Shown piece by piece: positions 23,858 to 62,164 of a stretch of 64,000 nt of DNA. The stretch is from the NCBI RefSeq assembly GCF_041154675.1, contig NZ_AP031322.1, positions 2,355,812 through 2,419,811 of the forward strand. The letters run 5' to 3'. The stretch is from Sulfurisphaera javensis. Its GTDB lineage: Archaea; Thermoproteota; Thermoprotei_A; Sulfolobales; Sulfolobaceae. Position numbers and translations under genes: made by a program. The stretch's first letter is position 1, and each line of letters starts with the position of its first letter. A model generated the notes under the pieces. That model was not told the origin of the DNA and did not search any database. It saw only the letters and a list, made by a program, of their open reading frames with translations.

Positions 23858-26666
23858 GTGTGTGATAGTTTCACACTACTTAAAGACTATGCTTACTTAG
23901 TCTACGTAGAAGGCAAAAAAAGATGCTACTAAAACTAACGTTAAGTTCAGAGACTTAGTTGATTGTAAAAATTATACTTCCACCGAACCATATGACTACT
24001 ATCTTTACCCTCATCAAATACAAACATTAGAAGCTTTAGAAAAAGGAAAGAGTGTAATTCTCACAGCATCAACTGGGAGTGGAAAAACTGAAGTCTGGTT
24101 ACTTTACTTTTTGAGGAACTCAACCAACAAGGTATTAGTAATTTACCCAACAAAAGCTTTAGCAAATGATCAGAGCCATAGGCTATACAAAATCCTTAAC
24201 TGCTTAGGTTATGACGTTCACGCTAAGGAGGATAAAGGGATATATTACGGTGATCTCGTAAGATATGATGGTGATACAAGTAGTTATGATGAAGTTAAGA
24301 GAAGTCTTCCTAGAAGTAAAATAATTACTACAAATCCAGACATGTTAATCCTCCACCTTGATTACCTCACAACTCTACAACCAAAATTAATTGTAGTTGA
24401 TGAACTAGACTTTTACGACATAGCTAAGGCAAATGCATTAATTGAAATACTACTAAACTCATTCCCTCACTCACAGTTCGTAATTATAAGCGGTACTTTA
24501 TCAAACCCAGATGACTTAGCAAAAAGACTAAATAATGCTGAAATAGTCAAAGGAGAAGCATTTAAGCCAGAACACAGATACTTCATAATTGTAGGAAAGA
24601 AAGACGAAGTGTAAAAAGTTTATAAAAAACGAGAGTAAACTTCTAAAATATCAAATATACAGTTTTGACGACTTCATTGAGAAAATCTTTGACTTATATT
24701 ATACTGCATCACTCAATATGGACAAAGAGCTAAGGACAGATATTTATGATGCCTTTCTAAAAGATGATGCATAAATTGAAGATTTACTTTCACTTTACAG
24801 AAAATGTGATAATGAGTTAACTATTACCTTCTTCCCGTCTATACTAGAGTGCGAAAAGTTTGGGAAAAATATGGGAATACCAACACACCACTCAAAAGTT
24901 GAAAAAAGACTAGAATTTTGTTAGAAAAGAGGCTAAGAGAAAGGATCGAAAATAACGTTTTCACTGTAAAGACCTTACTTCAAGGAATAGACATAGGTCA
25001 TGCTAAAAGAATAATTCATGTAGACTTACCTTTCTTAGTTAAAGACTTTATTCAAAGGGAAGGGAGAGCTGGAAGAAGAGAAAACCTTGACTTTGTTGAA
25101 AGCATAATTATTCCAAGAGGTTTTGACCCCAGGCTAAGAAATGGTTTTGAAACATTAAAAGTTTGGTTAAGCATAGGTCCAGAAGTAATCATTTATAATC
25201 CCGATAGTCTTTACGTAAAGTTATGGGATGCAGTATTGAAATTGAGGGAAGGGAGAAATTTAGATAACGTAGAGAAAAACTTAGCTGTTTTAGTAAACCT
25301 TATTGACGAAAAAGGGGGAGTGAACTACCACAAACTAAATCACTTCAAGTTTTATGAGATAAACACGGAAAAGAACAGATTAGTAATAGAAAGAGGAGGA
25401 AAAATGGAAGAAGTTGATAGAATTAGCATGAAAGACTTAATTGAGTTTTATCAGCCCGGGTATATTGATTTGTCAAATAAGACAATCGTTAATAAAGTGG
25501 AATACAACCCAGAGAACAAATACTTCACAGTTATCGAAAAGCCAGTAGACGAAATAGAAAATGAGTGTATTAAAGATGGCATTGAGGAATATGAAAGCGT
25601 TCTAATGAGGTGGAGTAAAGAGACTGGAGAATATATCCCTCCAAACTTTGAACTTGATTTAGAGCTAGGAAGAGTTCTGTCAAAAGTCCTTGTTGATATT
25701 CAATTTAAAGGTGAAGGGTTTGTAAAATATAAAGAAGTCCCAAGAGAAGTACGTTGGTATATACTTTCAAGGAAAAGATTGCCAAGCGTAAAAGATGGTA
25801 AGCTTGAGTATGTTTATTATTTTAATAAGATAGACTTAAACTGCAAACCAACTCCTAAAAAAGGAGGTTATGAGGACATAACTTACGCTTATGAAGTTAA
25901 GAATGTTGACGCTGAGGCTGGGATGTCTTTTTTACTCACAGCTTTAAGGCTATTTTACGGAATTAGACCAGATCTAATAAACTACAGCTATTTTGGAGAT
26001 ATACTAAAAATATGGGAGACTTCGCCAGTTGGTTTATTAGAGAAGATTAGGGAAGGAGGGTTGGTAATTAACGGTAAAAAATTAGATTATGATACTTTTT
26101 CAGCATATCTAAACAACGTTAAAGTAGATGAAGCATTTAAAGTCATTTTCTACTCCTTATATCCCGTAGAAGATATTGACTTTGATAAGGCAAGACAAGA
26201 TGCCTTAACATTAGCCTTTAAATTATTCAAAAGGGTTAAGATATTTAACAAGGTTTTACCATCTGCAGTTAGGAATATTGTATTGGATAAGTTAAGGATT
26301 AAGGATAAGGAATTTGTTGGAATAGTTTATCCATTCCTTGGTGGTGTTAATGTAATCACATTAACTAATCCCAAGGAGAAAGAGGTTTTAATGAAGGTAT
26401 TGGAAGCTTCAGAATTCTCAGATGTTATCCTTACAACCTCATATTTCCCAGAACTAGCAAAACTAAGAATTAACGTAGTAAATGTAAAGGAAGAATTTAA
26501 GAAAAAGTTTAATGCTGAAGTTGATCCGTCTGACTTTTCAGAAGAAATTGTGAATCTTGAGCTGGAAATTTCATCGGAAGAAGAAGATGATGAAGAGAAA
26601 ATAAAACAACTTTTCAAGTTAAGGGCTGAGATTATACAAGGCATGGCAAATTATCTCTATAGCTAA
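23858..26666 (+). pseudogene. Broken superfamily 2 helicase
   Basis: A large DExH-type helicase split by mutations. The N-terminal part reads YYLYPHQIQTLEAL, motif I TASTGSGKTEVW (about 24070), motif Ia YPTKALANDQ, and motif II VVDELDFYD (DELD). Frames change at the A-run near 23917, at about 24614 and at about 24915, and there is an in-frame TAA near 24772. The last 582 codons (24918-26666) are open, starting with motif V/VI (TLLQGIDIGHAK...QREGRAGRR) and a long C-terminal region I do not recognise, ending in an acidic tail (SSEEEDDEE). With one repair at each point the product would be about 930 residues. It is probably inactive. Confidence 0.75.
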
Positions 26667-46809: not shown

Positions 46810-47841
46810 TTAATGTATGAATTCCTCTATTGATTTCTTGAAGTTTAATCCTTCTTTCCAAGCATTTTCAACTACGTTGTGCTTTACTTCCCCATTTTGA
46901 TCAAATAATGCATCCCTAATTTTGTCAGCAAAGTTACTATTAGTTACTAATACTCCTTTCTTTATCTTATCAAGGTAAGAATTAATTTCGCTTATTACTT
47001 CATCAACGTTTTCTTTTCCTTTCACTTTTGTGAACATATCATAACTTGAGGATATTTCAAACGTTGTAAACATTATTGCTGGTATGTGTATTTTAATATT
47101 CCCTAAATGCGTAACCTTTCCACCGATTTTTGTAACAGCAATTAATGATGCTAGTTTTAGTAGAAAATCATTCACACCAACATCTTTCATAACAACTTTT
47201 CCTACAAATATTGTTCCTTCCTTTACTAAGGATAGTCTAAATAATGCTCCAGTTCTACCACCCTCTTCTCCTTCAATTAATGTAGTTTTAGTTATATCAT
47301 CTACAGCGTTGAAAGTTCTAACTACAACGCTTCTTGACTCAGGTAATGTAGCAATTAACAAGTCACCCTCAATTCTGCTTTTTACATTATATTTTCCTCC
47401 TTCCCTTACAGCATAGCCAAATGTCATACAATCTGGGCATTCTCCACACTGTCCACCCATTCTTTCTTCTTCTTTCTTAACAGCTGCCGTTGGTCTTAAT
47501 GTACAAGACCATTCATCGTCTTTTCCTCTTACTTTGTTTATTTCAGCCTTATGATGATCATAGTCATGGCGTAATAACTCAAGTTCTTTCCTCCTCCACG
47601 CTGATTGTAACTTATCATAAAGTATAATTGGATATTTCTCTTTTCCTATTGTAGCTAATGTTACGTCTTCTCCACCTTCATGTCTAATTAGCAGTTCGTT
47701 CTCAGCTCTTACAACTAAATACACATTTATTACTCTTCCTCTTGGGACTACGTTTGTTTTATCTACTTTTGATAGATCTGAAAAAAATTCTTTTACCTTT
47801 TCATATTCTATTCCGAAAATTTGTTTTATATATTCACTCAT
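46810..47841 (-). CDS. csc2: Type I-D backbone subunit Csc2 (Cas7)
   Basis: A 343-residue Cas7-family protein forming the I-D Cascade backbone. Marks are [17 protein letters not shown], the zinc-type [17 protein letters not shown] (about 135-150), [11 protein letters not shown] and [18 protein letters not shown]. The ATG at 47841 follows AGGTGAGG; the GTG at 47850 is less likely. It overlaps the end of cas10d by 8 bp. Confidence 0.88.
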
Positions 47842-50357
47842 TTTCCTCACCTAGAGAGTTGAATAATAGATATAACCAATTTACTAAGGCTGTGGAGATT
47901 GATATAGCTAAAGACCTATCACTTCTTTCTTCTATATCATAAAGTAAAGAAAAAACATCCCTTAAATTGGAAAACATTATCCCAGCGTGCTTATCATCTA
48001 AAGTATACTTATTTTGTAAGGAGTTTAATGCTGTATTTGCAGCTATTGCTACCCTATCATCTTTATCTAATACTACAGAAGATGTCTTAAAGAACATGTC
48101 TATGCCATCTCTGAAGAAACCTACAATATCGTGTTTACTTACATCTTTCTTATCTTTTATTATTTCATCTAATGTTTTTGCCATTGAATAAAGGGATTTG
48201 GAAAAGGTTTCACCCATTTTACTCACCTTACCAAACACTTTGTTTAAAAAATATGAATAGGGGAGAAGTGAATTAAAAAAACTTGATTCCTCATTTATTG
48301 CAATACCAAGTGCAATAACTGATAAAGATGGATCAACCATTGTGAACTCGTCCATTTCATTAACCATCGACATTAAGTAGTTCTCTCTCTTGTTAACATC
48401 TTTAACTGCCTTCTTCAAGGCAAAATACTTAGCTCTAAAAGCTAAAGCTAATAATAACACTTTCTCATTTTCAAGTCCTTTTAACCAAGTGTAATTATAT
48501 TCGGATGAAATCTCAATATGCCTTGAGGAAAGTGGGAAATCGTAAATGTTAGATGTTATGAAGACTGGAGAGGCTAAGAAAGAAATTGATATTGAAGGAA
48601 CTGATGGTAAAATGTCGTTGAGTACTTCCTTTGTAAGCCTAGTATATCTTCCTGAAATTCCTAAATTATTAGCAGAAATTACTATTTTAGAACCTAAATA
48701 ATCTGGGAGAACTGTTCTATCTCTCTCATTTAAACCTCCTCCAGCCTCTTCATAAATCTTTTTGAACACTTCATCCTTAATTACATCAGCAAACACAATC
48801 TTATCTTGACTTACTCTATACGTTAAAATTTTTAAAAGGTCAACTGCAATACCGGGATAGAAGGAAACTATAAGGTAAGGAGAGACAAAAGTTTCTTTCA
48901 TCATACTAGCCTCATAATTGCAAACTGGACAAATTGTCCACAGTTTAGAAACTTTATCTATTTCCTCAAGCCCAGTCTCTCTTGGTATCCATATCTCTGT
49001 CTTACCTTTTAACTGAGTACTGTACTGCTTAAAACTTGTTACCTCTCCGTAAATTGGCATTCCACAAACTATACAATAATTCTTTGGTTTATCCTTTATC
49101 TCTGGTAAATCGTTAACAACGTCACCGTTAAATGACTTCTTGACGAAGGCCATTAAAGTCAAATCTCCTTTTGACTCTCCAGAGTACTTCTTTTCCAAAG
49201 CCTTAATTATTCCCTCTAGTACTTTTTCGGTATCCATGTCCTTCAAGTAATGCGGGAACTTCTCTTTTATTCCTAATTCGTCCTTAATGTAATCCTTGTT
49301 ATCTGGGTTTTTACTAAATTTCTCTAAAAAGTATGTTATTACAGCATGAGGTAAATCATCCTTATACCTTTCAACTATTGTTTTGGCTACTTTCAATTTT
49401 CCTTCATTATCAAGTAAGGATACTACGTCTTCAAAATAATTACAACTCTTTGTTGGAAGAAAGGCATTTAATTGTTTAGGCTTTCCTTCCTTGTAAAGTA
49501 TATCAAATTTACTTAGATTTAACTCTCTCCAGTCCTTTTCCTTTGTCTTTATACACTTTTCAATAGTATTTACAAATGGTTCTACATCTTCACTCCCGCC
49601 AATTAGCCTCTTTGAAAGAATCTTGTAAATTTCGCTAAGCTTAATTTTGTCACTTTCCTTCCTTGTTAGGTAAACTATTCCGTCGTGGTAAGAAATTAAT
49701 GGTCTACCATTTAATTGATTTATTATATCTTCAGAAGCTAAAAGGGTGAAAAGTCTTGGTGAGGATTGTAAGTAAGAAAGTTTTAGACCATAAGAGTTTA
49801 ACCCTTTTATAGCCTCCTTATAGTTCATTTTCTCTGCAAAATACATTACGTCATTTACACCATGAATTGTACTTATCATTAGCATGTCAGCAATTTTCAC
49901 TGAAATCCACAAAGGGTAATCTTCATTAGCAGTTAAAGGTCCTTCAGCAAAGTTTGCTATAACATCAATAAATTTATCTGAGTTTGGTAATCCAGTCTTC
50001 TTTGCAATTTCCTTTGCCTTATTTTTAGCCTCTTCCGGTATTTTATATTCTCCTTACTTCTTTTTGGCTATATAATTTCATCCAGTCGTGGAAAAACCCT
50101 CCAAAGTATGCAAGGCTTTTGTAATTTATCCCATATTTTTTCTCAAGTATTTGAATTCCCTTATTGTCAACCTTGCTAATTTCATCAAGTATTGTCAAGG
50201 AAAGTGTGCCTACTGAAACTGAGTGGAAGATGAAGGATTGAGGAGATTTTTCCTTAGCCTCTTTTATTGCCTCTGAAAATCTAAGCAATTCAAAGGATTT
50301 TTTGACTAGCTGAATTAGCTCATCGTAATAATTTTCAGCCATTAATTCTCTATTCAT
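47834..50357 (-). pseudogene. cas10d: Type I-D large subunit Cas10d, frameshifted
   Basis: The large subunit and nuclease of type I-D. The N-terminal HD domain is in one frame (50357 to 50043): FIFHSVSVG and YFGGFFHDWMKLY carry the metal ligands. A one-base shift at about 50050-50060 ends it at RRI. Coding continues in another frame from EYKIPEEAKNKAKEIAKKTG to the stop at 47834, with zinc-type CIVCGMPIYG and CPVCNYEA and the helical C-terminal half. Total length about 840 residues. The break separates HD nuclease from the rest, and the second part has no good start codon. Either the gene is recently broken, or the ribosome shifts frame there. Confidence 0.8.
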
Positions 50358-50885
50358 ATACAAAATTATAAACTTTATTCAGTCATTTACAGTATTAACA
50401 CATAAATTTAAGGTCGTAATTCTTTCTCATAATTTGTTTTCTTACTTAGCTATTTTTACGTAAACGTGAAAAAATGAAAAGGGAAAATTTTGGTGTAAAA
50501 GTTTTTGTAGATTTTCTATTTTTCTTACTCTTCTTTTACATAATTTAAGAGGAATTTTTATTTTATTCTTGAGGAGTTTTTCTGCGTATTATAATAATAT
50601 AATGATGTATTACATGAAAATAAAGTAGGATTTCAGCTTTCTTTCTTTATTCTTTATGTTAACTTTTCCTAAAAAGAAATTCAAAAAATACAATCGAGAC
50701 GGTTTAAGTTAACTAGAAAATAACAATTTTTAATTGAACCCCTTACACATTAAATAAATTTCACTTAATGTGTGAAAACAGATATTCTACTTGAAGACAT
50801 GCATAGAGAAATTAATATGCTCTCTCAAGGTTTTAGTGTGAAAAAAGAGTAAACTTATAATATTCCTCTGCATTTTTCTTTTTTT
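50358..50885. other. Divergent region between cas10d and cas6
   Basis: About 530 AT-rich bases with no gene, holding the promoters of the csc operon and of the second cas6 and the inverted repeat at 50745-50773. Confidence 0.55.
50745..50773. promoter_or_regulatory. Inverted repeat in the I-D divergent region
   Basis: ACACATTAA and TTAATGTGT form a perfect 9-bp inverted repeat with an 11-bp gap. A related half-site, AGTGTGAAAA, recurs near 50836 next to TGTGAAAA at 50770. It may be the operator of a dimeric regulator for the I-D genes. Confidence 0.4.
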
Positions 50886-51742
50886 GTGTACACACTTCAC
50901 AAGGTAAAGATTAAGGTTTCTGATTTTGTTACTGCCGATTATACTGGGAAATTTGTTAAAGCCTTGTTAATTAACGCTAACCCATCATTTCAAGAAGTCT
51001 TTGAAAACCCCTCTTACCCTACTCCAAAACCAATTAGAATAACACCACTTTTAAGGGGTGATGACACTTTTCCAACAGAAGCAATATATCCAAAATCATT
51101 CAAAAAACCTGAAGGGAAAATAAACATTGATATTCGTGGAGAATATTATTTCCTTGTTGGAATAAGGAGTGATTTAAACCAACAATTTATGTTAGCACTT
51201 TCTAAGCTTTTCACTGGCTTAACTTTCAAGTATGGAGAATTTGAGGTTAATGTTTCAGCAACTGGTTATGAGCAATTTCCAGTTGACTTTCCCAAATACT
51301 ATGACTATCTAGTTGTCAAGTTCATTTCTCCCTCAGTATTCAATGATCCTTTCTCAAGAATAGCTGGATTAAAACGGAAAAGGTCAAAAGGTTTACTCCA
51401 ATTCCACCCTTCATTTTCTCAGTTAACGTTTATGAGTTGTTAAGAGAGAAGTATAGGAAGACTATTGTAAAGCTTGGTTATGCATTTTATGAGTCCCACG
51501 ATAATTTAGTAAACGTAAAGAGGATTTGGTATTATTATAACGGCAAATGGTTACCCGGAGTAATAGGTTATGCAAAGTTTATTAGGAAGAAGAAAGTGAG
51601 GGAAGAAGCTTTAGAGGATTTTGTAAAGATCTTTACACACGCGCAGATTATGGGTGTTGGTACTGGAAGAGCTGCTGGATTTGGCTATGCGATAATAGAG
51701 GTGAAAAAAGAGGATTCGACAAGAAAGGAAAAAAGTAATTAA
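50886..51742 (+). pseudogene. cas6: Second cas6, frameshifted
   Basis: A Cas6 endonuclease divergent from the I-D genes. The N-terminal half (50886 on, GTG start) reads [21 protein letters not shown] and FSRIAGLK. One A appears missing in the A-run at 51371-51374: adding it joins [23 protein letters not shown] to the second half, ending in the Cas6 signature [21 protein letters not shown] near 51630-51700. As read, both pieces are incomplete and probably inactive. Full length would be about 285 residues. It resembles the intact cas6 at 42880 only in the C-terminal motif. Confidence 0.78.
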
Positions 51743-52528: not shown

Positions 52529-53569
52529 ATGTACATAAGGATATCTGGTAGGTTTACATCACAAATAAGTGTTTTAACTGGATCTGAAAACTTAGGAAAT
52601 TACAATACAGTGGCTTCTGCAAGAGTTGTCGTTAATATAGGGGGTGGTTATAAGCAATATGAGGTTCCAGTTCTTACAGGTAATGCTTTAAAACACTGGC
52701 ATGCAGTTTACTTAGCTCAAGCATATGTATCATTAAATGGAAAGCTATTAAATGAAATTTGTGAAAGAGGAATTGGATTAAGAGGGTATAAGGTTGATAC
52801 TAAATTATCAGATAACCTAAAGAATAAAGAAGCAGAAAACGAAGCTGAAGCTATTTTGGACGTATGTAATGATATCCACGGTTTCCTATTGACAACTAAG
52901 CAAATTAAAAGAGATAGCTTAGTAAAAGTTTCTTTTGCATCTCCTGTGTTTAATCCAGATATTTTAGAATATACAAGTCGTTTTGCTATCACTCATAATA
53001 GAGTTGACCCTCTGACTAGAGGTTCTAACCAAACCCAAATGATGGTATTTAAGCAAGAAGAGTCTTCAGGACCAGAGTTTGGATTTAATATTTCGATGAA
53101 TATGAATTATGTTATGAAACCAATGTATACTGATGATGTTGAAGCTATTAAAGAATATTTAAAGAAAGAAAAGATAGATGAAGAAGAAGAGAGAAAGAGG
53201 AGAATTAAAGCTTCAATAATGGCTGTTTCTTATCTATTAACTGGTGTTGGATCAAAACAAGCTAGAAGTTTAGGTATATTGAAACCTTTAGAACTGATTG
53301 CAGCTATATCTACAAAGCCTCTTCCTAACTTAATTCATGGTAGCTATGAAGACTATGTAACTTCATCTATCAGCTTACTAAACTTATATGCTAAGACTTA
53401 CAATGAAACTGTTTATATTCTATGTTATAATTCGAATTGCCAAGAACAAAAAAGTAAAGAAGAAGGAAAACAAGGAACATCAGGGAAATTAGTTATAACT
53501 AATGAAACTTCCATAGATAAATTCTTCGAAGAGTTGATAAATTATGCCATCGGTAGCAATAATAAGTAA
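52529..53569 (+). CDS. cas7: Type I-A backbone subunit Cas7 (Csa2)
   Basis: A 346-residue RAMP forming the helical backbone of Cascade I-A along the crRNA. It begins MYIRISGRFTSQISVLTGSEN, with GNYNTVASARVVVN, VPVLTGNALKHWH and later TGVGSKQARSLGILKP, all Csa2/DevR marks. The ATG at 52529 is preferred over the GTG at 52520 because the GAGGTGG Shine-Dalgarno overlaps the latter. It overlaps cas5 by 26 bp. Confidence 0.92.
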   Translation: MYIRISGRFTSQISVLTGSENLGNYNTVASARVVVNIGGGYKQYEVPVLTGNALKHWHAVYLAQAYVSLNGKLLNEICERGIGLRGYKVDTKLSDNLKNKEAENEAEAILDVCNDIHGFLLTTKQIKRDSLVKVSFASPVFNPDILEYTSRFAITHNRVDPLTRGSNQTQMMVFKQEESSGPEFGFNISMNMNYVMKPMYTDDVEAIKEYLKKEKIDEEEERKRRIKASIMAVSYLLTGVGSKQARSLGILKPLELIAAISTKPLPNLIHGSYEDYVTSSISLLNLYAKTYNETVYILCYNSNCQEQKSKEEGKQGTSGKLVITNETSIDKFFEELINYAIGSNNK

Positions 53570-54269
53570 AATAAAATTTCCGTTTTTCTCCTTAAAACAT
53601 ATTGAATCTTATCAAGTGGCTGTCTCATATCCTGTCATTTTTCCCTCAACGTTAGTCGGAGCTTTTGGATACGCTTTATCTTTACTAGGAGAATGTAAAG
53701 GAGATGAATGTAGTAAAGCTTATTCTAACTATATTCTTAAAGCAAGGGAGTTTGTAAACGAGAGTAGAAGAACAATAATCTCATCAAAGTTTCCTGTCAT
53801 TTTGAAAAGATTTAGAACTTTAGAGCGGGAAGGCAATAATTATAACTTACCAGAAAAAATTGATGAGATTAGTAAATCCACTGATGCAATGGTAAGAGAG
53901 TACGTATTTACTCCAGAAAGAGATTTTGTATTCACAGTAAAGAATGACAAGGAAATAGATGTTGTAAAGAAAGCGTTAAGGCTTATCGATAGACTCGGCG
54001 ACTCCGAGTCTTTAGTTTCTGTTATCGATGTAAGAGAAGAAGAATTAACTGAATGTACCTATAATAATGTAAACGTTATGGTAAAAGGAGAATTTAATTT
54101 TACTGAAAATACGTTGTTATTAGGGCTTGATGAGAATGGAAATAAAAGTCTCTTTGCAATTCCTTATAAAATAGTTGATTACTCTTTAGTTTACTCTCCT
54201 ATTCAAGTTAAGAAAGGTAATGTCTTGTGTGGAAAAAGTGTGAGAATTCCTAAAGGAGGTGACTGGTAA
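53544..54269 (+). CDS. cas5: Type I-A subunit Cas5
   Basis: A 241-residue RAMP that caps the crRNA 5' handle. The N-terminus KIKFPFFSLKHIESYQVAVSYPV and the STLVGAFGYALS glycine stretch near 35 are Cas5 of type I-A. It starts inside cas7 and its TAA (54267-54269) overlaps the apparent ATT start of cas3'. Confidence 0.88.
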   Translation: MPSVAIISKIKFPFFSLKHIESYQVAVSYPVIFPSTLVGAFGYALSLLGECKGDECSKAYSNYILKAREFVNESRRTIISSKFPVILKRFRTLEREGNNYNLPEKIDEISKSTDAMVREYVFTPERDFVFTVKNDKEIDVVKKALRLIDRLGDSESLVSVIDVREEELTECTYNNVNVMVKGEFNFTENTLLLGLDENGNKSLFAIPYKIVDYSLVYSPIQVKKGNVLCGKSVRIPKGGDW

Positions 54270-55984
54270 TTTCCATTACTAGTATAAAAGATGTAATAAG
54301 AACGTTTGTCACTGCATGGGCAAATTATAAAAATAAAAATATTAATATTGATGACTGTAGATTAAACAACCAAGCTTCAATAGCAGAAAAAATTTTTAGT
54401 AACAATGAGCCGAAACTTTTTATCCTTAAGGCTCCTACTGGATATGGAAAAAGTGAAATATTCTTTTCTATCTATTTCTATCAATTTATAAAAAACGATT
54501 ATTTTGCTGGCAGAATGTATGTTGCTGAGCCTGTTCATGCATTACTAAATAACATGCTAGAAAGAGCAAAAGTATATAGAGATTCTCTAAAACTAGATGT
54601 AACAGTCGGTGAAGATCACGGTGAGGTAATTCGTCCCACGTTTTTATATACGGCTAACATAACTTTAACCACGATTGATGCACTAGCTTATGGTTTTTTG
54701 GCTAAAAGAGTGATGACTTGGACTAGCCGTAACGTAACTACTGGAAGATATACAATACCAGCTGGTTTATTGATGAATTCATTTCTTGTTATTGACGAGG
54801 CTCATCTAATCCAAGACCAAGTATTTTTAGGACCTAGAATCTTGTCTAAAATCATTTGTAGTTTAATTGAATCCGGTGGGATTGTTTTATTATCTTCTGC
54901 TACAATACCAACATCTTATTTGAATTTCTTTAATTGTGAGAAAGAGGAAATAAAGGTACCTAAAATAGATAAAAAAGTGATCATAGAAGGAAATATTAAT
55001 ATTTCAGAATTACCTAATAAAATTCAAGGAGGGTCCATAGTATTTTTAAACACAATTGAAAGAGCAAGAGAAGTCTATAAAAATCTAAAGAAAAGCCTAA
55101 ACCATAACTATAAAGTTCTATTATTACATTCATTACTTAGATTAGAGGAAAAAAATAAAATTATAGATGAGCTTGATGAAGCTCAAAAGAACAAACAACT
55201 TGATAAATATATATTAGTTTCAACTCAATCCGCAGAAGTTGGAATAGACTATAGTTTTAATCAAATTTATACTGAAATCTCTCCATTAGATTCCCTTATT
55301 CAACGTTTTGGTAGAGTGAGAGAAGATAAAATTACTGCTTATTTATTAGACACTCCATCAGCTTATCCTTACCCAGAAATCCTAATTACAAAGACTAAAG
55401 ATATATTACAGAAGGCTGGAAGTGATCTTGATATTGGTGATGTGGACAACATTGTGTCACTTCTTGATAATGTTTATGAGAATGAAGTTATAAATAATTT
55501 AGCACGTCAAGGAGACAGTCACTACATTTCTGCAGTTGAATATTTAAACAATTTACATCTTTTCTCTTATCCGCCAGATAACGATGTATATTTAAGACCT
55601 TCATTCTATGTAACTCTTTACGTTATAACTGATAAAAATGAGTTTGAGAAAATATTAAATGCAATCAAAGCTAAAGACTATCAGAAATTAAGTGATTTAT
55701 TAGCAAACAAGTCGTTAAAAGTATCGATCTCACTCATTAATGATTATAATAGTAAAAGGTTAGATGAATTAATTAATCGGATTAAGGAATCTTGTCAAAA
55801 AACTGAAAGTAATATAACAGATGATATTTTAAAATGTGATAATGCTATAATAAAAAGAGGAGGTGAAATGATATTGTTTACTGCTAATGAACTTTATGAT
55901 TCAGAATTAGGGTTACTTCCAGAACTAAAAGAAGAAAATAAAACTAAAAAAGGAGAAAAAAGAAGAAAGAAAAAACAGGGATAA
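54269..55984 (+). CDS. cas3': Type I-A Cas3' helicase, apparent ATT start
   Basis: A 571-residue superfamily 2 helicase of type I-A, without nuclease domain. Motif I APTGYGKS (55-62), motif II DEAH (176-179), SSATIP, and motif VI QRFGRVRED are present. After the in-frame TGA at 54260-54262 there is no ATG, GTG or TTG before motif I; the first ATG (54515) would remove motif I. A strong Shine-Dalgarno GGAGGTGA (54255-54262) stands six bases before ATT at 54269, in a TAATT overlap with the cas5 stop where TAATG is usual. I therefore place the start at ATT. CTG at 54263 is an alternative. The HD nuclease follows as a separate gene two bases on. Confidence 0.8.
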   Translation: MSITSIKDVIRTFVTAWANYKNKNINIDDCRLNNQASIAEKIFSNNEPKLFILKAPTGYGKSEIFFSIYFYQFIKNDYFAGRMYVAEPVHALLNNMLERAKVYRDSLKLDVTVGEDHGEVIRPTFLYTANITLTTIDALAYGFLAKRVMTWTSRNVTTGRYTIPAGLLMNSFLVIDEAHLIQDQVFLGPRILSKIICSLIESGGIVLLSSATIPTSYLNFFNCEKEEIKVPKIDKKVIIEGNINISELPNKIQGGSIVFLNTIERAREVYKNLKKSLNHNYKVLLLHSLLRLEEKNKIIDELDEAQKNKQLDKYILVSTQSAEVGIDYSFNQIYTEISPLDSLIQRFGRVREDKITAYLLDTPSAYPYPEILITKTKDILQKAGSDLDIGDVDNIVSLLDNVYENEVINNLARQGDSHYISAVEYLNNLHLFSYPPDNDVYLRPSFYVTLYVITDKNEFEKILNAIKAKDYQKLSDLLANKSLKVSISLINDYNSKRLDELINRIKESCQKTESNITDDILKCDNAIIKRGGEMILFTANELYDSELGLLPELKEENKTKKGEKRRKKKQG

Positions 55985-55986
55985 AA

Positions 55987-56742
55987 ATGACATGCTGTGC
56001 TTATTATGATAAAAATAATAATTGTGTTGAAACTTACTTACAGCACATTTACTGTATGAACTTAGTTTGGGATAAAATAAAGAAATATTACATGAAAAAT
56101 TTAGCTAGAGTATTAGGGAAAAATGTCGATGTTGATAGGCTTATGAGAATAGCCTTTCTTGCTCATGATGCTGGTAAATTATTACAAGCTTATTTGAATA
56201 AAAGAGGAAGCTTTCAATATAGACATGAAATAGTTGGAGCATATGTAAATAAAGAATTAACAAAGGCAATTAACAATGATTATGTTTCTAATGTTATTGC
56301 AACAGCCGTTTTATTACACCATGAGGGAATAATATTAAGTGCTTATGCTGGGAAATATAATGAGAGAATAATACCACTTTCAACTATCAAAAAGGTAATT
56401 GAGATTTCAGACTTTACTTACATATGTAATGATTTAATGCAAGATCCATATTATGAAAAAGTAAAGAAATATTATACCGACGAAATAAACTTAATGGATA
56501 GCATAATGAGGAAAATTGATAAAAACAGAGTATACGATACTATTAAGGATATAATATCCTTTACAATAGTTGAAGGACTAAAATTTAGAAACAAAGTTGC
56601 CTCAGTGTTACACTTACTCTCTGTAGTAGATTCTGTAAGTGCAACATTAGATAGAGGAAATAATGAAGAGGATGCAGGTACACAAATATCCAGATTAGCT
56701 TTAAATGGAGCTGAACTAATTAAGGGGGTGAAATGCAAATGA
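55987..56742 (+). CDS. cas3'': Type I-A Cas3'' HD nuclease
   Basis: A 251-residue HD-family nuclease that cuts DNA with the Cas3' helicase. Ligands are visible: His20 in LQHIYC, His60-Asp61 in FLAHDAGKL, His80 in YRHEIVGA, and a HHEG motif near 107. Its start lies two bases after the cas3' stop and its end overlaps cas8a2. Confidence 0.88.
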   Translation: MTCCAYYDKNNNCVETYLQHIYCMNLVWDKIKKYYMKNLARVLGKNVDVDRLMRIAFLAHDAGKLLQAYLNKRGSFQYRHEIVGAYVNKELTKAINNDYVSNVIATAVLLHHEGIILSAYAGKYNERIIPLSTIKKVIEISDFTYICNDLMQDPYYEKVKKYYTDEINLMDSIMRKIDKNRVYDTIKDIISFTIVEGLKFRNKVASVLHLLSVVDSVSATLDRGNNEEDAGTQISRLALNGAELIKGVKCK

Positions 56743-58135: not shown

Positions 58136-59376
58136 CTTAGTTCCATAATGGCTTATTAACGGTTGATGGACATGGGACGATACCGGTGACTGCTAACTTT
58201 CAATTCCATAGAGGATTAACTTTACTTCGTAATGGGGATGTTTATATTTGCCATAGGATTCTTTCAATTCCATAAAGGATTAACTCGAGGAAGCCTGTAG
58301 TTATTCCAGTAGATACGATAGAAGCTTTCAATTCCATAAAGGATTAACTTCATCACAAGGGATGAGGTAAAAGAGAGAAGGTATTCTCACTTTCAATTCC
58401 ATAAAGGATTAACCTAATTTCATACCACGAGCAACAGTGATGCCTTTAAAACCACTTTCAATTCCATAAAGGATTAACCCTAGTCGCACAAGAACCGTTA
58501 AGGCTAAACGACGAGGTTCTTTCAATTCCATAAAGGATTAACAATGCTAAAGCTAGTAAAATCTCGAATAATAATCTTCTCTTTCAATTCCATAAAGGAT
58601 TAACCCCGAAAGGGAGGCGAATACCCCACGACGTTAGGGATGAACTTTCAATTCCATAAAGGATTAACAGAGACGCCAAAGACTGGTAAAGTTGTTGCTC
58701 TTGATTTCTTTCAATTCCATAAAGGATTAACAAAGCTGGAAGAAATCGCGCAGAGTTGATCGTGAAGGAGGCTTTCAATTCCATAAAGGATTAACGGGGA
58801 AATCTTGATTAAAAAAATAATTGGGCAAAATCCAGGCTTTCAATTCCATAAAGGATTAACTTGAAAAAAGAAAAGAAATTCAAATTGATTTTTATATCTT
58901 TACTTTCAATTCCATAAAGGATTAACTAGGAAAGCAAAAGCCAAGCAGCGCGCTGCCAGACCCACCCTTTCAATTCCATAAAGGATTAACTAATAATCTT
59001 TCCAGACGTTTTAGATGAAATTGAAAAACTCTTTCAATTCCATAAAGGATTAACACAATGCAATTGCCGTTCTATATGATAATACAGTAGGAATCTTTCA
59101 ATTCCATAAAGGATTAACTTGTTGATGATACTGATGGTGAAATTGTTGTAGAAGTATTACTTTCAATTCCATAAAGGATTAACCGATGACGGATTCAGTG
59201 TCTCGTGCACGAGCGAAGCTGATGCTTTCAATTCCATAAAGGATTAACATATTGTACAAATGGAACACTATAGTAACTGTCTATATTCTTTCAATTCCAT
59301 AAAGGATTAACTTTTGCCTACCATTAACTGACGAGAAATAGTTTATGGCAATCTTTCAATTCCATAAAGGATTAAC
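58136..59376 (-). CRISPR. CRISPR array 3: 20 repeats (one degenerate), 19 spacers
   Basis: 24-bp repeats starting CTTTCAATTCCATAA and ending AGGATTAAC; spacers 36-42 bp. The leader is on the right. The oldest repeat (58136-58160) is degenerate (TTAGTTCCATAATGG...TTATTAAC). The next (58197-58220) reads ATAGAGG, between the array 1 form (ATAGTGG) and the main array 3 form (ATAAAGG); the other 18 are identical. Repeat and leader differ from arrays 1 and 2 but are clearly related. Confidence 0.97.
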
Positions 59377-59640
59377 TGAAGATTTTTAAACTGTTCCTTA
59401 TTTATATTTACTCTTATTCTCCTATATAAGTTTTATGTTCTATTTTTCTTCTATATTTTTCTCTCAAAATTATTAATTCCCGTGTTTTTCCGGGAAATTT
59501 AGGTTTTCTCTAAAGAGGTAATTAATTTAGGCTAACGTCCTACCTGTCTTGTTATTAAGGTTTAACGTCTTTCTCTTACAAACACGGGAACAAAAATTCA
59601 AAAAACTGTATCTAATTATATTCTATAGCATCTATTATTA
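59377..59640 (-). promoter_or_regulatory. Leader of array 3
   Basis: Starts TGAAGATTTTTAAACTG and shares AGAGGTAATTAATTTAGG (59514-59531) with the other leaders, but outside that block it differs from leaders 1 and 2. Its bases 59489-59596 are repeated without a change, in inverted orientation, at 63893-64000. A CCCGTG/CACGGG pair (59500 and 59584) could form a long hairpin. Confidence 0.85.
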
Positions 59641-61695: not shown

Positions 61696-61890
61696 ATGAA
61701 AAATTCTAGTATAATTAAAAGTGAAAATGAGCACTATCCTCTCTATAAAGAGAAGTCAATTCCATTTAAACTTATGAGATATCTTATATATTTATTACAA
61801 AATATTGTAAAGCCGAATAGAAATTTTTCTAAAGACTTAAAGATACAACAACACAGAAGTTTGAGAACTACAAAGAATATAAAAGGGTGA
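61696..61890 (+). CDS. Short unknown ORF between cas1 and cas2
   Basis: A 64-codon frame whose ATG touches the cas1 stop (TAGATG) and whose stop lies five bases before the cas2 start. The predicted protein is basic and unlike any Cas protein I know (KSIPFKLMRYLIYLLQNIVK in the middle). cas1 and cas2 normally adjoin. The DNA also contains CTCTATAAAGAG and TCAATTCCAT, which look like pieces of the leader and repeat. It may be an inserted fragment and not a functional gene. Confidence 0.4.
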   Translation: MKNSSIIKSENEHYPLYKEKSIPFKLMRYLIYLLQNIVKPNRNFSKDLKIQQHRSLRTTKNIKG

Positions 61891-61894
61891 GAAC

Positions 61895-62164
61895 ATTATA
61901 GTTTTAGTTGTTTATGATGTCTCAGATGATGGAAAGAGGAATAAGTTAGCAAATGAGTTAAAAAAATACGGACTTGAGAGAATACAAAAGAGTGCTTTTG
62001 AAGGGAATTTAGACCCACAAAGGATTAAAAACCTGATAAGAGTGATTAAGGAAATTATAGATCCATCTACAGATATTGTTCATATAGTTCCTTTAGGTTT
62101 GAGAGATTGGGAAAACAGAATAGTAATTGGAAGAGAAGAAATAGTTAACCAATTAATAGTTTAG
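61895..62164 (+). CDS. cas2: Cas2, apparent ATT start
   Basis: An 89-residue Cas2, the central dimer of the integration complex. IVLVVYDVSDDGKRNKLANE is the usual first strand with the conserved Asp, followed by GLERIQKSAFEGNL. Upstream, the frame is closed by TAA at 61880-61882 and no ATG, GTG or TTG lies between it and the VVYD strand. ATT at 61895 stands exactly where ATG is expected, four bases after GGGTGA. cas4 downstream has the same AAAAGGGTGA signal with the same four-base spacing before its ATG. So ATT is either a rare start codon or a start-codon mutation. Confidence 0.82.
   Translation: MIVLVVYDVSDDGKRNKLANELKKYGLERIQKSAFEGNLDPQRIKNLIRVIKEIIDPSTDIVHIVPLGLRDWENRIVIGREEIVNQLIV

What the first reader, a model, noticed from the sequence alone, without database searches (positions are those of the whole stretch)
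54255..54275. I-A cas3' also seems to start with ATT
The only way to include Walker A is to start between the in-frame TGA and 54431, where no ATG/GTG/TTG exists. A strong GGAGGTGA lies six bases before ATT in a TAATT stop-start overlap. Two cas genes with ATT for ATG in one island is unlikely by chance and suggests regulated weak initiation or a lineage-specific use of AUU.
Basis: seen in the sequence. Interest (0 to 1): 0.55.

Follow-up and report, generated by a model that had tools for sequence, protein, structure and literature searches.

The report
Cas3 helicase gene starting with ATT
A CRISPR helicase gene and the nearby cas2 gene of a heat-loving archaeon appear to begin with ATT instead of ATG, GTG or TTG, and related archaea seem to use similar rare start codons in a few other genes, which would mean that gene finders miss or shorten some of their proteins.

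Summary
The type I-A cas3' frame is open from 54263 to 55984, and its first ATG/GTG/TTG (54515) lies behind the Walker A motif. All 15 ortholog loci examined have an ATG/GTG/TTG ahead of that motif (in L035 the well-placed one is cut off by a frameshift). Five of 15 place it exactly 6 nt after GGTGA, where the window has ATT (54269) behind GGAGGTGA. cas2 (ATT at 61895) is a second case: 28 of 29 family homologs held have ATG/GTG/TTG at that codon. The best explanation is SD-driven initiation at AUU, probably helped by coupling to cas5.

'Lineage-specific AUU' needs widening. Orthologs support other near-cognate starts in the same family: ACG invariant in sucD (30 of 30 loci), ATA, ACG or TTA replacing ATG in a precorrin-methyltransferase-like gene, ATA in a G015 gene, and ATT in a G006 permease (probably without an SD). 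I found no evidence for regulation.

Against a functional reading: cas10d and cas6 in the same island are frameshifted, so decay is the main rival, although two start losses without a nonsense codon are unlikely under it (about 0.001). No proteomic or ribosome-profiling data were available.

The parts
53544..54269 (+). cas5a; its last codons (GGA GGT GAC TGG TAA) carry the SD of cas3' and its stop overlaps the ATT
   Evidence: TIGR01874 124.3 bits, cut-off 23.05; sequence
54255..54262 (+). Shine-Dalgarno GGAGGTGA, complementary over GAGGTGA to the 3' region of the 16S gene
54269..54271 (+). ATT, proposed start codon of cas3', in a TAATT stop-start overlap
   Evidence: same 6 nt gap from GGTGA as ATG in L032 and GTG in L034, L130, L131 and (before its frameshift) L035
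54269..55984 (+). cas3' helicase, 571 codons from ATT, frame intact
   Evidence: TIGR01587 139.9 bits, cut-off 102.45; PADLOC Cas3a1 E 5.7e-57; alignment A1
54431..54454 (+). Walker A motif APTGYGKS, upstream of the first ATG/GTG/TTG
54515..54517 (+). first in-frame ATG; a start here would drop 82 N-terminal residues including Walker A
55987..56742 (+). cas3'' HD nuclease, ATG start
   Evidence: PADLOC Cas3a2 E 1.5e-33; TIGR01596 38.8 bits, below its cut-off of 43.45
61885..61890 (+). SD GGGTGA of cas2, gap of 4 nt to ATT
61895..61897 (+). ATT, proposed start codon of cas2
   Evidence: 28 of 29 homologous loci held from the family have ATG/GTG/TTG at this aligned codon, the other has ACG
61895..62164 (+). 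cas2
   Evidence: PF09827 73.5 bits, cut-off 23.8; PADLOC Cas2a E 3.4e-43
58190..59384 (+). CRISPR array beside the adaptation genes, 19 near-uniform repeats

Best explanation
cas3' is a working gene whose ribosomes start at AUU 54269. A strong SD (GGAGGUGA, inside the end of cas5) places the 30S-initiator tRNA complex at the distance where several relatives have AUG or GUG, and AUU is accepted as a near-cognate start. Termination of cas5 on the overlapping UAA probably supplies ribosomes (coupling). Shown: the frame, the absence of ATG/GTG/TTG, the SD, the matching spacing in five orthologs, the parallel case in cas2, and further ortholog-supported near-cognate starts in the same family. Inferred: that translation really starts there, that methionine is inserted, that coupling matters, and that output is lower than from AUG.
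For: cas3': the open frame begins at the cas5 end, and residues invariant in alignment A1 begin at its codon 10. All 15 ortholog loci have ATG/GTG/TTG before Walker A; in L035 the well-placed GTG is in the frame before a frameshift and only one GTG just before Walker A is in the helicase frame. cas5 lies upstream in 14 of 15 (not in L002). Five of 15 use the 6 nt gap of the window's ATT. cas2: 28 of 29 homologs held are canonical at the codon that is ATT here. Family background: sucD has ACG in 30 of 30 loci, 6 nt after GGTGA in 26, with overlapping sucC codons held at NTA-CGN although CGN is only 6.2-8.5% of Arg codons in four sampled genomes. A precorrin-methyltransferase-like gene alternates ATG, ATA, ACG or TTA at the same gap. 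A G015 gene has ATA where four homologs (86-98% identical) have ATG. A G006 permease has ATT where three homologs (79-81% identical) have ATG. Decay is disfavoured: 112 start-loss against 2866 nonsense opportunities, so two start losses and no nonsense has p about 0.0014.
Against: Two other cas genes of the island, cas10d and cas6, are each split by a frame change, which fits decay. No close relative of this cas3' was found (best 43-49% identity), so purifying selection could not be measured. No expression data were available. aIF1 is reported to favour discrimination against non-canonical starts in S. solfataricus (PMC6237735, passages), and a 2020 review names AUG, GUG and UUG as archaeal starts (PMC7531240, passages). 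None of the 120 of 432 own-sample ORFs with homologs in the other samples showed a clear non-canonical start, so such starts are rare. The permease case has no conserved SD, so not every case fits an SD rule. The one search test uses frames chosen for being open.
Confidence: 0.7

Rival explanations
1. Decay: the start codons of cas3' and cas2 were lost by mutation in an island that is falling apart, and little or no protein is made.
For: cas10d and cas6 are split by frame changes, and a Cas3-like helicase at 23910-26663 is broken.
Against: SDs and spacing are kept; frames of 571 and 89 codons have no stop; two start losses with no nonsense codon in 5432 cas codons has p about 0.0014 under equal substitution rates (the frames were chosen as open, but the two split genes are split by frame changes, not by in-frame stops); the neighbouring array has 19 near-uniform repeats; similar starts occur in sucD and other genes across the family.
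Confidence: 0.15
2. Initiation at another near-cognate codon close by: CTG 54263, GTA 54266, ATT 54275 or ATA 54284.
For: L034, L035, L130 and L131 use a GTG in the TGGTGA end of cas5 that corresponds to GTA 54266.
Against: CTG touches the SD (gap 0) and GTA has a gap of 3. In those relatives the GTG has a gap of 6 (for L035 in the frame before its break), which here falls on ATT 54269. GGTGA gaps of 4-7 hold for 20 of 23 SD-led ATG starts in the own sample.
Confidence: 0.09
3. Sequencing or assembly error at the start codons.
For: Single genome; the two frame changes in the same island could also be errors.
Against: It would need two independent base substitutions, both in start codons; the genome is one contig of 2.57 Mb at 99.54% completeness; conserved cases such as sucD (30 loci) cannot be errors.
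Confidence: 0.04
4. Cas3' is made as a Cas5-Cas3' fusion by a -1 frameshift at the end of cas5 (TGG slipping to GTA ATT).
For: A -1 slip after TGG 54264-54266 would enter the cas3' frame; one programmed -1 frameshift is reported in archaea, in S. solfataricus fucA1 (PMC8211752, passages).
Against: No slippery heptamer at the site by eye, no structure stronger than shuffles, and orthologs have ordinary starts.
Confidence: 0.02

Closest known systems
AUU start codon of bacterial infC (recalled, no call)
   Same: AUU as the start of a conserved gene behind an SD
   Different: infC is autoregulated by its product IF3; here the genes are archaeal cas genes with no sign of feedback
Rare AUG/GUG to AUU switches in 36 groups of prokaryote genomes (PMC5622118, passages)
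   Same: One of 61,358 ancestral AUG starts and one of 5,080 GUG starts switched to AUU; sub-optimal starts tend to come with stronger SDs
   Different: Those counts rest on gene annotation (as I understand the method); here two cases lie in one CRISPR island and others in the same family were found without annotation
Type I-A cas3' orthologs of other archaea (L002, L031-L035, L128-L132, L134-L137)
   Same: a cas5 homolog upstream in 14 of 15; in L031-L035 the helicase start lies at or across the cas5 stop
   Different: 15 of 15 have an ATG, GTG or TTG before Walker A, the window has none

Membership tests
type I-A Cas3' helicase | score above the curated Cas3' helicase cut-off | tested here: met
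   TIGR01587 139.9 bits against 102.45
type I-A Cas3' helicase | Walker A and DEAH motifs in the encoded protein | tested here: met
   APTGYGKS and DEAH aligned and largely invariant in A1; Walker A is present only if translation starts before 54431
type I-A Cas3' helicase | separate Cas3'' HD gene and I-A effector genes beside it | tested here: met
   cas11a, cas7a, cas5a, cas3'', cas8a
gene with a non-canonical (AUU) start codon | no ATG/GTG/TTG can give the conserved N-terminus | tested here: met
gene with a non-canonical (AUU) start codon | orthologs have a standard start at the same place | tested here: met
   15 of 15 have one before Walker A; 5 of 15 at the same SD gap; exact codon match only in L032
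gene with a non-canonical (AUU) start codon | protein N-terminus or ribosome position measured at the codon | not testable with these tools
   no proteomic or profiling data available
infC-like autoregulated AUU gene | feedback by the product on start-codon choice | not tested

The most novel reading that the evidence does not exclude
In this archaeal family the start-codon set is wider than AUG/GUG/UUG. Mostly behind a strong SD at the right distance, one-base variants of AUG (AUU, AUA, ACG) and perhaps UUA serve as sole start codons, both sporadically (cas3', cas2, a precorrin methyltransferase, a permease) and as a fixed family-wide feature (ACG of sucD). Gene finders that allow only the three standard starts would truncate or lose a small share of its genes.
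Probability: 0.6. Interest if true: 0.65.

Novelty: new variant of a known kind. Interest (0 to 1): 0.52.

Why it matters
If true, archaeal initiation tolerates near-cognate codons in vivo where the SD is strong. That makes the question of how aIF1 and the SD share start-codon selection directly testable in tractable organisms. It also means that cas3', cas2, sucD and similar genes may be truncated or called pseudogenes by automatic annotation (existing annotations of these genes were not looked at here).

Tried and rejected
Rejected as starts: 13 loci of the scan that have an ATG/GTG/TTG one or two codons downstream (read). Not used as evidence: G006 L223 (looks like the interior of a transporter) and the G006 L239 sites, which have no ortholog support. 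The homology screen between the four genome samples found no new clear case in the own genome. It gave one probable ATT or CTG start in G015 (L203) and one unclear CTG-like case in G030 (L181), neither used as main evidence. RNA folding of the start region gave nothing. An initiator-tRNA check was inconclusive: ARAGORN was run on 30 of the 46 tRNA loci, left several unread and reported no Met tRNA.

Literature: ten searches were made. In the titles and abstract beginnings listed I saw no paper on AUU or ACG starts in Sulfolobus or in cas genes. Some lists were capped (20 of 27 shown, 20 of 21, 15 of 59), AUA was not searched, and only open-licence PMC papers are held. Passages of four papers were read; two papers on S. 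solfataricus initiation were not held.

Full report
What is there. The window lies in a 2,569,661-base single-contig genome. At 44-64 kb there is a type I-D set on the minus strand (cas3d, cas5d, cas7d, cas10d) followed by a type I-A set on the plus strand: cas6, cas11a, cas7a, cas5a, cas3', cas3'', cas8a. A CRISPR array with 19 near-uniform repeats and the adaptation genes cas4a1, cas1, cas2, cas4a2 follow, with csa3 on the other strand.

The start of cas3'. The cas3' frame is open from 54263 (after TGA at 54260) to 55984, and the first ATG/GTG/TTG is at 54515. The Walker A motif starts at 54431, and alignment A1 of six sequences shows invariant residues from codon 10 of the open frame on (D10, I12, W19). 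A start at 54515 would therefore remove the conserved N-terminus and the ATP site. The available start lies in CTG GTA ATT TCC ATT ACT AGT ATA. GGAGGTGA ends 6 nt before ATT 54269, and GAGGTGA is complementary to the 3' region of the genome's 16S gene.

Comparison with orthologs. I collected 15 ortholog loci of this cas3' subfamily (L002, L031-L035, L128-L132, L134-L137). L126, L127 and L133 repeat L002, L033 and L035 at their 5' ends and were left out; L128 and L129 are identical at their 5' ends but were both kept. The more distant cas3' loci were not counted. All 15 have an ATG, GTG or TTG before Walker A; L035 has a frameshift between its well-placed GTG and the helicase, leaving one GTG just before Walker A in the helicase frame. 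A cas5 homolog lies upstream in 14 of 15, not in L002. In L032, L034, L035, L130 and L131 a start lies exactly 6 nt after GGTGA: ATG in L032, GTG in the others. In the window that place is ATT. By sequence the window ATT equals the ATG of L032, while the GTG of the other four corresponds to GTA 54266. The other ten have standard starts at other spacings (for example 10 nt in L031) or without GGTGA.

The second gene. cas2 (61895-62164) also has no ATG/GTG/TTG before codon 53 of its open frame. Its sequence GGGTGAGAAC ATT ATA GTT reads (M)IVLVVYDV, which matches the N-terminus of its homologs. One search covered 31 genomes and found cas2 in 26, the own one included. For the 29 other loci held, from 25 genomes, the aligned first codon is ATG, GTG or TTG in 28 and ACG in one, L055 from G006. 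Weaker matches without a locus were not read.

Is it a wider habit? A scan of 464 kb of the own genome for SD-led frames without a nearby standard start left cas3', cas2 and sucD; a second scan with other filters gave only cas3' and cas2. sucD proved the most informative. In 30 of 30 family loci the codon before the residue aligned with Leu is ACG, 6 nt after GGTGA in 26. GTG stands two codons after ACG in 9 of 30, and 19 of 30 have no ATG/GTG/TTG at all from the upstream stop to codon 20 (one of the 31 genomes, G027, was not held as a locus). In the 22 loci outside the family that were read, 21 have ATG and one TTG two codons further upstream. ACG overlaps sucC. There the codon is CTA, GTA, TTA or ATA (13, 8, 5, 4), always ending in TA, and the next is always CGN, although CGN makes up only 6.2-8.5% of Arg codons in four sampled genomes. 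This points to selection on ACG itself.

Further cases. Scans of 400 kb each from G030, G015 and G006 gave more candidates. For a precorrin-methyltransferase-like gene 12 of the 30 loci held were read. It has ATG 6 nt after the SD in L288 and L292, ATA in L289, L290 and L291, ACG in L293 (which also has an ATG touching the SD) and TTA in L286 and L287; L294-L297 have ATG or GTG. A G015 gene has ATA 6 nt after GGTGA where four homologs (86-98% identical) have ATG; five more distant homologs also have ATG nearby. A G006 permease has ATT where three homologs (79-81% identical) have ATG at the same codon, and 20 of 20 other loci read (those three included) have ATG or GTG within three codons. The close homologs lack an SD there, so this start may not depend on one. 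Counting only the strongest SD (GAGGTGA) near gene starts in the four samples, 29 of 37 sites have a standard start at the expected gap. Of the 8 others, cas3', the G030 TTA gene and the G015 ATA gene have ortholog support; the other five have a standard start close by or no support.

Results against. The homology screen found no additional clear case among 120 of 432 own ORFs with homologs in the other samples, so the phenomenon is rare. In the same island cas10d is split (profile positions 3-92 and 92-804 in two frames) and cas6 is split (1-169 and 150-267), and a Cas3-like helicase at 23.9-26.7 kb is broken. This makes decay a serious rival. Against decay, the 18 cas frames offer 2866 single-base ways to a stop but only 112 ways to lose a start, yet two start changes and no internal stop are seen (p about 0.0014 under equal rates). 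The test ignores mutation bias and takes as given frames that were chosen as open.

Mechanism. Most likely the SD fixes the small subunit so that AUU sits in the P site, and the initiator tRNA accepts a third-position mismatch. The TAATT overlap lets ribosomes finishing cas5 restart. Output is probably lower than from AUG, which would suit a helicase needed in smaller amounts than Cas7 or Cas5; these steps are inference. The literature seen gives context. AUG to AUU switches were counted once in 61,358 starts, and weak starts tend to have strong SDs (PMC5622118, passages). aIF1 is said to favour discrimination against non-canonical codons in S. solfataricus (PMC6237735, passages). A review lists AUG, GUG and UUG as archaeal starts (PMC7531240, passages).

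Verdict. The reading as a true ATT start is well supported but unproven. The claim of AUU-specific or regulated use is not supported; a family-wide tolerance of near-cognate starts, mostly behind a strong SD, fits better.

Noticed in passing
L112:1432-2287 (own genome) and L118-L120, L155-L180: sucD starts with ACG in 30 of 30 family loci, 6 nt behind GGTGA in 26; 19 of 30 have no ATG/GTG/TTG up to codon 20. A family-wide non-standard start in a housekeeping gene.
   Followed up: yes
L286-L297: A precorrin-methyltransferase-like gene whose start 6 nt after a strong SD is ATG, ATA, ACG or TTA depending on species (12 of 30 held loci read).
   Followed up: partly
L316 (G015): Start ATA 6 nt after GGTGA where four homologs (86-98% identical) have ATG.
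   Followed up: yes
L241 and L055 (G006): Permease starting with ATT where three homologs (79-81% identical) have ATG; cas2 with ACG at the aligned start codon.
   Followed up: partly
47834-50378, minus strand: cas10d of the type I-D system is split into two frames (profile positions 3-92 and 92-804), by a frame change near 50045-50053.
   Followed up: partly
50853-51742: cas6 is split into two overlapping frames (profile positions 1-169 and 150-267).
   Followed up: partly
23910-26663: Cas3-like or DEAD-box helicase gene broken by stops between two open frames.
   Followed up: no
54262-54283: Predicted hairpin that contains the first two bases of the ATT start; the 86 nt folded are no more stable than shuffled sequence (z -0.31).
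   Followed up: partly
L035:2890-3010: Vulcanisaeta distributa cas3' ortholog is broken by a frameshift shortly after its GTG start.
   Followed up: no
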